NCBI GenBank assembly: GCA_900316365.1
Contig: ONCO01000011.1
Location: forward strand, 1-42,680
From: an uncultured Erysipelotrichaceae bacterium
GTDB lineage: Bacteria > Bacillota_I > Bacilli_A > RFN20 > CAG-826
Direction of reading: 5' to 3'
DNA length: 42,680 bases
The notes beneath the pieces are model-generated. The model was not told where the DNA came from. It saw nothing but the letters and a program-made list of their open reading frames with translations, and searched no databases. Positions 15,045 to 17,653 of this stretch are shown here, one piece after another. The stretch's first letter is position 1. Each line of letters begins with the position of its first letter. The position numbers and the translations under genes are program-made.

Positions 15045-15075
15045 GAAAAAGTTAGCCCGCCGGCTAACTTTTTTT
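15045..15075. terminator. Bidirectional terminator between lipoprotein gene and hipT
   Basis: AGTTAGCC (15050-15057) and GGCTAACT (15062-15069) make a perfect 8-bp stem with a 4-base loop. On the plus strand it is followed by a 7-T run (15069-15075); on the minus strand by TTTTTC (15050-15045). It can serve both the 13669-15042 gene and the convergent hipBST operon. Confidence 0.88.
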
Positions 15076-16022
15076 CATGCGAACGTTTTGCTTCGTTCCA
15101 GAATTAACGCCTTGAATTCCTCTTTGTGTTTCTCGCTTAACGATGAATGATCGATAAGTTCGAACATCTTCGGGATGAATGAAATGAGTTTCTTCATCAT
15201 CCTAACAACTTCCTTGCCTTCGAGATTCTCTCTAGGATCTTCGCTAGAGGCGAATTTGATGAAGTCATTCTTGGTGACGTTTTTCTTTTTGCCATGGAGG
15301 GTTAAGGCAAATTCCTCCTTGTCGCTTGGAAAAACAACGTTGACCGGAAGCAAATCATAAGCAGCCGATAACGAATAAACTCCGTTATTCTCGATCAAGG
15401 AGAAATTCTTAAGGTGCATATCGCTATTGCCGGTGAGATAGCAAAATAAAAGCAAATATACAAACCGGCTTAAATCAGCTTTTTTGCTATCGGAGAACTT
15501 AGCGATAACCTTTTTGCACTGCTCATAGGAAGAATGGTATTTATCCTCCGTAAGCCTGCCGCTGAGCTGGCAGAAATCCTCCATGGCAATTGCTTTCCCA
15601 TCGACGCGGTCAATACGCCTTGTGATATAGGCCCTGCTTCCGTCTTTGAGACATAGCAAGCCATGGGGAACGACACGAATGCCACAGCATTCGGCCAAAC
15701 ACATCGTAAGGTTTTCGCCCTCTGGAAAATCGTCTCCTTCGCCTTTGACCTGACTTTTGAGAATTAAGCCCGAAGGATAATCAACGAGAGTAAGCTTACG
15801 TTCGTGGTTTTTGGAAAGGCCAAGGCTTAATTTCTTCTGCACTCCAGGGACGGTGTAGGACAAATCGACTCTGTGTCTAGCAAGTTCTTCGATGCTCTTC
15901 TCATCCAAATCGATTATTGGGAGTTCCTTGGTGCCAAAAACCTTAGCCACGCAGCGATCGTGCCAAAGTTTATTCTCATCATTGAGCTCCTTTCCACAGG
16001 AAAGGCAGTAATGCTGTTTCAT
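15075..16022 (-). CDS. hipT: HipT/HipA-family serine/threonine kinase toxin
   Basis: This 315-residue protein is the kinase part of a HipA-type toxin; characterised relatives phosphorylate aminoacyl-tRNA synthetases (HipA acts on GltX, E. coli HipT on TrpS). Residues 6-24 contain Cys6, Cys9, His21 and Cys24, resembling a small metal-binding knuckle. The glycine-rich loop is TVPGVQKKLSL (57-67) and a probable ATP-binding Lys is K89. The catalytic segment is GNSDMHLKNFSL (198-209; Asp201, Asn206) and the metal-binding aspartate is in AYDLLPV (Asp223). The usual N-terminal HipA subdomain is absent and is encoded by the preceding hipS, as in HipBST systems. The ATG overlaps the hipS stop as ATGA, with AGGAGG eight bases upstream. 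The target here is unknown. Confidence 0.85.
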   Translation of the reverse strand: MKQHYCLSCGKELNDENKLWHDRCVAKVFGTKELPIIDLDEKSIEELARHRVDLSYTVPGVQKKLSLGLSKNHERKLTLVDYPSGLILKSQVKGEGDDFPEGENLTMCLAECCGIRVVPHGLLCLKDGSRAYITRRIDRVDGKAIAMEDFCQLSGRLTEDKYHSSYEQCKKVIAKFSDSKKADLSRFVYLLLFCYLTGNSDMHLKNFSLIENNGVYSLSAAYDLLPVNVVFPSDKEEFALTLHGKKKNVTKNDFIKFASSEDPRENLEGKEVVRMMKKLISFIPKMFELIDHSSLSEKHKEEFKALILERSKTFA

Positions 16023-16342
16023 TCTTTCACCCTCCTAACGCTGACGGAACCGATTGGGTCAGCGCAAACGGATAGGAGTAGCCCCATACGGTCACGACGG
16101 TCAACCTTCCAATTCTCCTCGCTAATCGCAAGCAGCCATCCCTCTGGAATCAGGCCATCGAAGAAGGAAAACATCGTTTTACTGATGTATGGCTCTTTTA
16201 TTAATGGCAAGGTCAATGACACCGGTTTCGGATTATCGCCTTTCAGGTATTCCTCGTCATAGCAAAAACGATAACCATCGTCGTTCTCTTCAATGGTCCC
16301 GGCGTAGTTGGAGTAAACGTAAACGTAGCCAATTCGCGCCAT
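16019..16342 (-). CDS. hipS: HipS-like antitoxin (detached HipA N-terminal subdomain)
   Basis: This protein of about 107 residues corresponds to the N-terminal subdomain that is fused to the kinase in HipA (Couple_hipA; IGYVYVYSNYAG, then FSFFDGLIPEGWLL). In E. coli HipBST the separate HipS acts as the antitoxin. ATG 16342 is preferred because GAGG lies nine bases upstream; an earlier in-frame ATG at 16357 overlaps the end of hipB and has no usable ribosome site. It sits between hipB and hipT, with a 4-bp overlap to hipT. This split arrangement, not a truncated gene, explains the short hipT. Confidence 0.8.
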   Translation of the reverse strand: MARIGYVYVYSNYAGTIEENDDGYRFCYDEEYLKGDNPKPVSLTLPLIKEPYISKTMFSFFDGLIPEGWLLAISEENWKVDRRDRMGLLLSVCADPIGSVSVRRVKE

Positions 16343-16346
16343 GACG

Positions 16347-16550
16347 TTAATCCTCATCCTTAACCGGCTCTAAATGATATCCGAGCATCGACAAAGCCAC
16401 TTCAACCTTATCCATGCGGACCGTCGCCTTCCCTTGTTCCAATTCGCGGATAAAACGGAGGCCTAATCCCGAATAAATAGAGAACTGTTCCTGGGTAAAA
16501 CCCATTTCTCTTCTTTTTGCTTTGATCCAAGTGCCAATAGAGTTTTTCAT
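16347..16550 (-). CDS. hipB: HipB-like Xre-family DNA-binding autorepressor
   Basis: The 67-residue protein is a single helix-turn-helix domain of the Xre/Cro type (IKAKRREMGFTQEQFSIYSGL, with the recognition helix around FIRELEQGKA). In Hip systems HipB binds palindromes in its own promoter and bridges the toxin complex to DNA. It is the first gene of the operon, followed by hipS and hipT. It has no Shine-Dalgarno: the -10 TAAAAT ends six bases before the ATG, so the mRNA is probably leaderless. Three matching palindromes upstream are its likely operators. Confidence 0.85.
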   Translation of the reverse strand: MKNSIGTWIKAKRREMGFTQEQFSIYSGLGLRFIRELEQGKATVRMDKVEVALSMLGYHLEPVKDED

Positions 16551-16556
16551 ATGCTT

Positions 16557-16584
16557 ATTTTATACCTTTTAGGGTATATTTCAA
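16557..16584 (-). promoter_or_regulatory. hipBST promoter with operator in the spacer
   Basis: On the minus strand TTGAAA (16584-16579) is the -35, a 16-nt spacer follows, and TAAAAT (16562-16557) is the -10. Operator O1 (16561-16578) covers the whole spacer, so a bound repressor would directly block RNA polymerase. The start point is predicted at or beside the hipB ATG. Confidence 0.65.
16561..16578. promoter_or_regulatory. hipBST operator O1
   Basis: TATACCTTTTAGGGTATA is a near-perfect palindrome with arms TATACC and GGTATA. It lies in the spacer of the hipB promoter. The half-site spacing resembles known HipB operators, though the sequence differs from that of E. coli (arms TATCC/GGATA). 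Confidence 0.75.
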
Positions 16585-16611
16585 GCGATTTTGGGCGAAT
16601 AACTAATCTTT

Positions 16612-16629
16612 TATACCTTTTCGGGTATA
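16612..16629. promoter_or_regulatory. hipBST operator O2
   Basis: TATACCTTTTCGGGTATA repeats the O1 palindrome with one change. It starts exactly 51 bp after O1 starts. Confidence 0.75.
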
Positions 16630-16662
16630 TTTTACATATTATCCCTTTAATTACTGCATTTT

Positions 16663-16680
16663 TATACCCTTTAGGGTGCA
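16663..16680. promoter_or_regulatory. hipBST operator O3
   Basis: TATACCCTTTAGGGTGCA is a third copy with a degenerate right arm. It starts exactly 51 bp after O2. It is also about 115 bp from the divergent 16796 gene, so it could affect that promoter. Confidence 0.65.
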
Positions 16681-16795
16681 TTTATCATTACTTTGATAGT
16701 TGGAGTGTCAAAAAAGACACAAACGGAACAAAATGGGGCATAATAGACGGGCACAAACATAAACTAAGGTTTATATAAAGGAGTTTTTACCAACT

Positions 16796-17653
16796 ATGAA
16801 CACCACTCTCGTAATCATGGCCGCCGGTATGGGCAGCCGCTTCGGCGGACTTAAGCAGGCCCAGGCCGTCACGGACGACGGCAAAGGCATCTTGGACTTC
16901 TCTGTCTTCGATGCGAAGAAGGCTGGCTTTGATAAAGTCGTCTTTATCATCCGTAAGGATGTCGAAGAGGAATTCAAAGAGCTTATCGGCAACCGTATCG
17001 CCAAGACGATCGATGTCGATTATGTCATCCAGGATACCTCCGTCTTACCAGAAGGCCGCACCAAGCCATTCGGCACCGGTCATGCGATCCTTTGCTGCAA
17101 AGACGTCGTTAAGACCCCGTTCTGCATCATCAACGCCGATGACTACTATGGCTGCCACGCCTTCATCGAGGTCGAGAAGCATTTAGAGAATGCCAAGAAA
17201 GGCGAATACGCGATGGTCGCCTATCAGATGGGCAACACCCTTTCTAAGAACGGCACCGTCACCCGTGGCGTCTGCTCCCTTAGCAAAGATGGCTACCTCC
17301 AGAGCATCGAGGAAGTCCAGAAGATCGATTCCACCGGTCATTGCGTCTACCAGGGCAAAGAAGGCACCCTTCCTGCCACCACCCCTGTCAGCATGAACCT
17401 CTGGGGTTTGACCACCGATATCTTTGATATCCTCGAAGAGGAATACGCGAAATTCTTAAAGACCGCCGACCTCATGAAGGACGAATTCTACATCCCGCTC
17501 GTTATCGGCGACGCGGTTAAGAACGGCAAAGCCACCGTCAAAGCCTACATCAATAAAGACGTCTGGCATGGCATCACCTATCGTGAGGACCTCCCAGAAG
17601 TCAAAGAAGCCATCGCCGGTTACGTCAAAGCCGGTTTATACGAAGGCTTATAA
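16796..17653 (+). CDS. Sugar-phosphate nucleotidyltransferase (NTP_transferase family)
   Basis: The 285-residue protein has the nucleotide-binding signature of sugar-1-phosphate nucleotidyltransferases at its N-terminus (LVIMAAGMGSRFGGLKQ, residues 5-21). The usual Lys is followed by an acidic motif, INADDYYG near residue 115, which should bind the metal and the sugar phosphate. Family members make an NDP-sugar from NTP and a sugar 1-phosphate; the sugar and base are not determined. AAGGAG lies 12 nt before the ATG. It is transcribed divergently from hipBST and ends at a very strong terminator, so it is a single-gene unit. A link to the NahK-like kinase at 30.5 kb, which would make a suitable sugar 1-phosphate, is only an inference. 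Confidence 0.85.
   Translation: MNTTLVIMAAGMGSRFGGLKQAQAVTDDGKGILDFSVFDAKKAGFDKVVFIIRKDVEEEFKELIGNRIAKTIDVDYVIQDTSVLPEGRTKPFGTGHAILCCKDVVKTPFCIINADDYYGCHAFIEVEKHLENAKKGEYAMVAYQMGNTLSKNGTVTRGVCSLSKDGYLQSIEEVQKIDSTGHCVYQGKEGTLPATTPVSMNLWGLTTDIFDILEEEYAKFLKTADLMKDEFYIPLVIGDAVKNGKATVKAYINKDVWHGITYREDLPEVKEAIAGYVKAGLYEGL

What the first reader, a model, noticed from the sequence alone, without database searches (positions are those of the whole stretch)
16557..16680. Three hipBST operators in exact 51-bp phase
Palindromes TATACC-N6-GGTATA start at 16561, 16612 and 16663, each 51 bp apart (about five helical turns), so bound repressor dimers would lie on one face of the DNA. The first fills the spacer between -35 (16579-16584) and -10 (16557-16562). 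Such spacing suggests cooperative binding or looping by a HipBST complex.
Basis: seen in the sequence. Interest (0 to 1): 0.6.

Follow-up and report, generated by a model that had tools for sequence, protein, structure and literature searches.

The report
Helically phased hipBST operator array
Upstream of a three-gene bacterial toxin-antitoxin operon (hipBST) lie three repressor-binding palindromes spaced about five turns of the DNA helix apart; comparison with some 60 related operons shows that this spacing nearly always takes whole-turn values, usually four turns and here five, which suggests that the face of the DNA on which the repressors sit is under selection.

Summary
The array is real. 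O1 (16561-16578) and O2 (16612-16629) are exact TATACC-N6-GGTATA palindromes, the only two exact copies in the 1.47-Mb genome. O3 (16663-16680) keeps the left half, but its right half is GGTGCA. Both spacings are 51 bp. The operon is a complete hipBST of the Legionella-like branch. Regularly spaced triple HipB operators are known from Legionella, where HipB binds each, so the architecture is not new. New here is the comparison: in 57 hipBST loci from several phyla, 106 spacings fall at 39-42 (90), 49-52 (15) and 72 bp (1), with none at 43-48. The window is the only TATACC-type locus at five turns; its sister loci have four. Operator sequence tracks the HipB recognition helix, and spacer sequences are unalike, so recent tandem duplication is not the cause. 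E. coli K-12 hipBA has 28/39/28 bp instead. In-phase binding is well supported; cooperativity, looping or additive bending remain inferred. In passing: about 60 distinct virus contigs carry single TATACC-type pairs at 40/41 bp without a detected hipB, and two homologous ones differ by exactly 10 bp (41 versus 51).

The parts
16561..16578 (-). O1, promoter-proximal HipB operator, exact palindrome; fills the -35/-10 spacer
16612..16629 (-). O2, exact palindrome, 51 bp upstream of O1
16663..16680 (-). O3, imperfect palindrome (one half GGTGCA), 51 bp upstream of O2
16557..16584 (-). candidate hipB promoter TTGAAA-16-TAAAAT; would start the RNA about at the hipB ATG (leaderless, inferred)
   Evidence: for the same placement in relatives
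16347..16550 (-). hipB, 67 aa HTH repressor (HTH_3, couple_hipB)
16019..16357 (-). hipS, 112 aa antitoxin (HipA N-terminal domain, Couple_hipA), overlaps hipB by 11 bp
15075..16022 (-). hipT, 315 aa kinase toxin (HipA_C), overlaps hipS by 4 bp; nearest solved relatives are the Legionella HipT-type chains

Best explanation
The three palindromes are the autoregulatory operators of the hipBST operon. HipB dimers (alone, and more effectively as part of HipB-HipT or HipB2S2T2 complexes) bind O1, O2 and O3. O1 lies inside the core promoter and blocks RNA polymerase; O2 and O3 lie upstream on nearly the same face of the helix and strengthen repression, either by contacts between neighbouring complexes or because the bends that each complex puts into the DNA then add up in one direction. 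The phase, more than the exact distance, is what evolution keeps: the period is four turns in most loci and five in this one. Basis of the steps: hipBST identity and the array are shown here; HipB binding and repression are inferred from homologous systems; selection for phase is supported comparatively here; contacts versus additive bending is open, and the tolerance of 4, 5 and 7 turns favours bend direction or flexible contacts over one fixed contact distance.
For: Spacing histogram over 57 hipBST loci: 39:1, 40:33, 41:50, 42:6, 49:1, 50:8, 51:5, 52:1, 72:1, none 43-48. Motif-blind triple search with free lags 28-85: both lags in 39-42 or 49-52 in 47/62 hipB upstream regions versus 5/186 shuffles and 10/248 other segments of the same loci. 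HipT tree: window's sisters L007, L009, L010 (SH-aLRT 98) are four-turn; the four/five-turn labels need two switches, one in the window lineage and one for the clade L017-L022 plus L077. Locus L024, next to that clade, has one interval of each kind (41, 52). Operator sequence follows the HipB recognition helix: GLGLRFVRELEQGK with TATACCC, VSTKFISQLENGK-type with TAACCGA, SLFFVRELEQ with TATATG. Spacers of adjacent intervals are unalike, 0.42 identity versus 0.37 shuffled. O1 but not O2/O3 is preceded by a TTGACA-like hexamer (5 or 6 of 6 in 23/57 versus 2/57 and 3/47). Legionella HipB binds three evenly spaced operators (PMC10653801); E. coli HipB suffices to repress hipBST, and low expression of hipBST or hipBT is enough while hipB alone needs high levels (PMC10627512); HipBA binding bends its operator about 70 degrees (PMC3376134). 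Pattern searches independent of HipT in two genome sets give the same values: TATACC pairs next to hipB at 40-42 and 51, TWACC pairs at 50/51.
Against: No binding or expression data for this organism. At 10.5 bp/turn 40, 41, 50 and 51 bp all fall 34 to 86 degrees short of whole turns, so strict same-face alignment needs a repeat near 10.2 or tolerance. The Legionella authors contrast their gel-shift pattern with the cooperativity of E. coli HipB. Most loci share the four-turn state by descent, so independent support for quantisation comes from a few events (window, clade L017-L022/L077, L024, L066). Operator positions of sixteen loci were set by hand from the outputs, and six loci without a clear array were left out of the histogram. 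E. coli K-12 hipBA works with 28/39/28-bp spacing, so whole-turn phase is not a need of all Hip repressors.
Confidence: 0.8

Rival explanations
1. HipB complexes bind the three sites independently; about 41 bp is only the closest packing of bulky HipBST complexes and larger spacings are neutral, so phase has no function.
For: Legionella EMSA: each 50-bp single-operator fragment was bound and the authors raise intermediate occupancy (PMC10653801). The commonest spacing is also the shortest one seen.
Against: A pure packing limit predicts a spread of spacings above 41; none of 106 lies at 43-48, while 15 lie at 49-52. Both intervals of the window are 51.
Confidence: 0.15
2. The regular period is a relic of tandem duplication of one operator unit rather than of selection.
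For: Equal intervals within loci; a 10-bp indel that looks like a local duplication exists in a virus copy.
Against: Spacers of adjacent intervals are only slightly more alike than shuffled ones; the period is kept across phyla while spacer sequences have turned over.
Confidence: 0.05
3. The array belongs to the divergent nucleotidyltransferase gene (16796-17653) or regulates it jointly with hipB.
For: O3 lies 115 bp from that start codon, and the intergenic region is shared.
Against: In relatives the array stays at hipB; O1 abuts the hipB start in most loci, on plasmids and chromosomes with other neighbours. A side effect on the divergent gene is not excluded.
Confidence: 0.05
4. The palindromes are RNA hairpins or terminators.
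For: A simple scan flags 16665-16678 as terminator-like.
Against: They lie upstream of the hipB start, no Rfam family matches, they occur in triplicate at a fixed period, and their sequence covaries with the HipB recognition helix.
Confidence: 0.02

Closest known systems
hipBST of Legionella (PMC10653801)
   Same: Three evenly spaced 18-nt operators with 6-nt inverted repeats; the proximal one is the most conserved and overlaps the promoter; distal ones have broken symmetry; closest solved relatives of the window's HipT and HipB.
   Different: Reported inter-operator gaps are 53 bp, which if edge to edge means about 71 bp centre to centre (my reading, not checked on sequence), versus 51 here and 40/41 in most loci; helical quantisation was not discussed in the passages read.
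hipBST of E. coli O127:H6 (PMC6581861, PMC10627512)
   Same: Gene order B-S-T, overlapping genes, HipS as antitoxin, HipB as repressor.
   Different: HipT more distant (49 bits versus 164 for the Legionella chain); the Legionella operator motif is reported absent from its promoter.
hipBA of E. coli K-12
   Same: HTH repressor with several palindromic operators over its own promoter; HipBA bends DNA.
   Different: Operators TATCC-N8-GGATA at 28, 39 and 28 bp, not whole turns; HipB is also the antitoxin; HipA is unsplit.

Membership tests
hipBST toxin-antitoxin module | first gene encodes an HTH HipB | tested here: met
   HTH_3 above cut-off; couple_hipB E 9e-19, slightly below its own cut-off
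hipBST toxin-antitoxin module | separate hipS equal to HipA N-subdomain 1 | tested here: met
   Couple_hipA 6.6e-23, 112 aa
hipBST toxin-antitoxin module | hipT kinase without the N-terminal subdomain, catalytic motifs kept | tested here: met
   HipA_C 4.4e-39; by eye in the translation GVQKK, GNSDMHLKNF and YDLLP are present
hipBST toxin-antitoxin module | HipS neutralises HipT; HipT phosphorylates TrpS | not testable with these tools
   needs biochemistry
hipBST toxin-antitoxin module | placement in clade III of the published Hip tree | not tested
   tree holds only relatives of the window, no published reference set
Legionella-type phased triple operator | three evenly spaced 18-bp operators, proximal one in the promoter | tested here: met
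Legionella-type phased triple operator | HipB binds each operator | not testable with these tools
   covariation with the recognition helix is indirect support
hipBA-type operators | TATCC-N8-GGATA consensus | tested here: not met
   sites are TATACC-N6-GGTATA; K-12 control

The most novel reading that the evidence does not exclude
The phased HipB operator array is a portable regulatory code. Many virus genomes carry a lone TATACC-type operator pair at exactly the four-turn (rarely five-turn) spacing but no detectable hipB, next to changing genes, and would thereby bind the host's HipB or HipBST complex, to hijack it as a repressor or to titrate it as the phage genome multiplies.
Probability: 0.3. 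Interest if true: 0.85.

Novelty: new variant of a known kind. Interest (0 to 1): 0.6.

Why it matters
The comparative pattern turns a vague idea (cooperative or looped HipBST repression) into a sharp prediction: whole-turn changes of spacing should be tolerated and half-turn changes should not, and natural loci with 4, 5, mixed 4/5 and 7 turns give ready-made constructs. It also separates hipBST from hipBA, whose operators follow another spacing rule. If the virus pairs bind host HipB, toxin-antitoxin repressors would be direct regulatory targets of phages, a link I did not find described.

Tried and rejected
Tandem duplication as origin of the period: rejected on spacer dissimilarity. Chance: rejected. 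Rfam RNA element: none. Other HipB targets in the own genome: only one- or two-mismatch sites without enrichment over the reversed-pattern control (38 versus 86 matches). HipB residue Tyr26, shared by the window and all seven clade L017-L022/L077 proteins but by no four-turn HipB: kept only as a lead, since 3 of 46 other proteins show one such coincidental column. A TWACC-type counterpart of the virus pairs at 50/51 bp: only two weak cases among a handful, no population. A viral hipT relative: none found. BLAST of the virus pairs against named phages gave nothing informative. The hipBA promoter structure papers were not held.

Full report
Observation. On the minus strand, upstream of a gene that starts at 16550, lie O1 16561-16578, O2 16612-16629 and O3 16663-16680. 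O1 and O2 are exact TATACC-N6-GGTATA; O3 is TATACCCTTTAGGGTGCA, two mismatches in one half. The spacing is 51 and 51 bp. The genome of 1.47 Mb holds no other exact copy; about 0.11 would be expected from composition. A search that knows neither motif nor spacing picks the same three sites, z = 11.7. A candidate promoter TTGAAA-16-TAAAAT brackets O1; with that -10 the RNA would start at about the hipB ATG, so hipB may be leaderless (inference). A second candidate promoter with an exact TTGACA lies just upstream of O3 (16711-16684).

Identity. The genes are hipB (16347-16550), hipS (16019-16357) and hipT (15075-16022), overlapping by 11 and 4 bp. Among solved structures HipT is nearest to the Legionella HipT-type chains (164 bits, against 49 for the E. 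coli-type chains 7ab3-7ab5) and the HipB profile nearest to Legionella HipB. Legionella hipBST has three evenly spaced operators, each bound by HipB, the distal two with broken symmetry (PMC10653801). The window therefore matches a known architecture, down to an imperfect distal site.

Comparison. Relatives were collected from the window's family, class and phylum, from a collection of 84,980 species genomes and from plasmids. After removal of near-copies, 63 upstream regions were scanned. Most hold three sites, some two or four. Over 57 loci the spacings are 39:1, 40:33, 41:50, 42:6, 49:1, 50:8, 51:5, 52:1, 72:1. Positions in sixteen loci were set by hand from the scan, the triple search and the printed sequences, and six loci without a clear array were left out. 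As a check free of hand work, the triple search alone puts both lags in 39-42 or 49-52 for 47 of 62 regions, against 5 of 186 shuffles and 10 of 248 other segments of the same loci. The loci include Bacilli, Lachnospiraceae, Spirochaetes, Bacteroidota (with plasmids of Hymenobacter and Runella) and Fibrobacter-like bacteria. Pattern searches that do not use HipT give the same values: TATACC pairs next to hipB at 40-42 bp, with the window at 51, in 395 genomes of the class, and TWACC pairs at 50 or 51 bp in four genomes of the family.

Evolution. On a HipT tree the window groups with L007, L009 and L010 (SH-aLRT 98), all four-turn. The four/five-turn labels need two switches, one in the window lineage and one for the clade L017-L022 plus L077; the single seven-turn locus (L066) adds a third change. 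L024, beside that clade, has one four-turn and one five-turn interval (41, 52). Operator sequence changes with the HipB recognition helix, which ties the sites to HipB. Spacers of adjacent intervals are nearly as different as shuffled ones (0.42 against 0.37). In E. coli K-12 hipBA the four operators lie 28, 39 and 28 bp apart, so the whole-turn rule is not general for Hip repressors.

Mechanism. O1, but not O2 or O3, is preceded by a -35-like hexamer (5 or 6 of 6 in 23/57, 2/57 and 3/47), so O1 is the direct block and O2/O3 are auxiliary. HipB alone represses the E. coli hipBST promoter, and very low expression of hipBST or hipBT suffices (PMC10627512); HipBA bends its operator by about 70 degrees (PMC3376134). 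In-phase complexes would lie on one side of the DNA and their bends would add. Because 4, 5 and 7 turns all occur, a single fixed contact distance is unlikely; additive bending or flexible contacts fit better. This last step is inference. Strictly, 40-41 and 50-51 bp are whole turns at about 10.2 bp/turn and fall 34 to 86 degrees short at 10.5.

A larger pattern met in passing. Of 83 non-redundant pairs, 60 are spaced 40 or 41 bp and 3 are at 51 (only one of these three, L122, has the typical sequence context); 116 of 120 lie outside ORFs of 100 aa or more. In 34 whole records of 15-322 kb a HipB profile finds nothing, and nearly all records carry one pair; these records may be fragments, and that search had no positive control. 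Two homologous copies, L255 and L122/L211, differ by exactly 10 bp between the sites, 41 against 51. Neighbouring genes vary: terminase, methyltransferases, dihydrofolate reductase, exonuclease. Whether host HipB binds these pairs is unknown; another repressor with the same recognition helix is possible.

Verdict. The array is real, and its reading as in-phase hipBST operators is well supported. Membership in hipBST is met on the features that can be tested by sequence. The kind is known from Legionella; the five-turn variant and the whole-turn rule are, as far as I could find, new.

Noticed in passing
L115, L119, L129, L137, L152, L165, L175, L177, L197, L226, L229, L243, L258, L263, L297, L313 and about 45 more virus loci: Single intergenic TATACC-type palindrome pairs at 40/41 bp in virus contigs with no hipB found; reversed control pattern gives 2 matches against at least 120.
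   Followed up: partly
L255:6340-6396 versus L122:13895-13961 and L211:82-148: Homologous virus operator pairs that differ by an exact 10-bp indel between the two sites (41 versus 51 bp).
   Followed up: yes
L242, L278, L281, L252, L293: In some tRNA-bearing virus contigs the pair lies within or beside tRNA genes.
   Followed up: no
window HipB residue 26 (minus strand, within 16347-16550): Tyr26 at the end of HTH helix 2 is shared by the window and all seven HipB of the other five-turn clade, and by none of the four-turn HipB; could be coincidence.
   Followed up: partly
16705-16720: Perfect inverted repeat GTGTC-AAAAAA-GACAC between the array and the divergent nucleotidyltransferase gene.
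   Followed up: no
16684-16711: Second candidate hipB-direction promoter (TTGACA-16-AATGAT) just upstream of O3, so O3 could block it.
   Followed up: no
L024 upstream of hipB: Mixed locus with one interval of 41 and one of 52 bp; its hipB reading frame looks disturbed.
   Followed up: no
L092/L100 (G393:C24): Array at 41/40 bp beside a HipB-like and a weak HipS-like gene in a genome that the HipT search did not report at E 1e-30.
   Followed up: no
G000:C15:56733-57344 (L004:148-1239): Second, distant HipA-like kinase gene (31% identity to HipT) in the window's own genome, followed by a 350-aa ORF.
   Followed up: no
L066 upstream of hipB: Planctomycete hipBST with TGYTCCCGATCGGGAGCA palindromes 72 bp apart, about seven turns.
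   Followed up: partly
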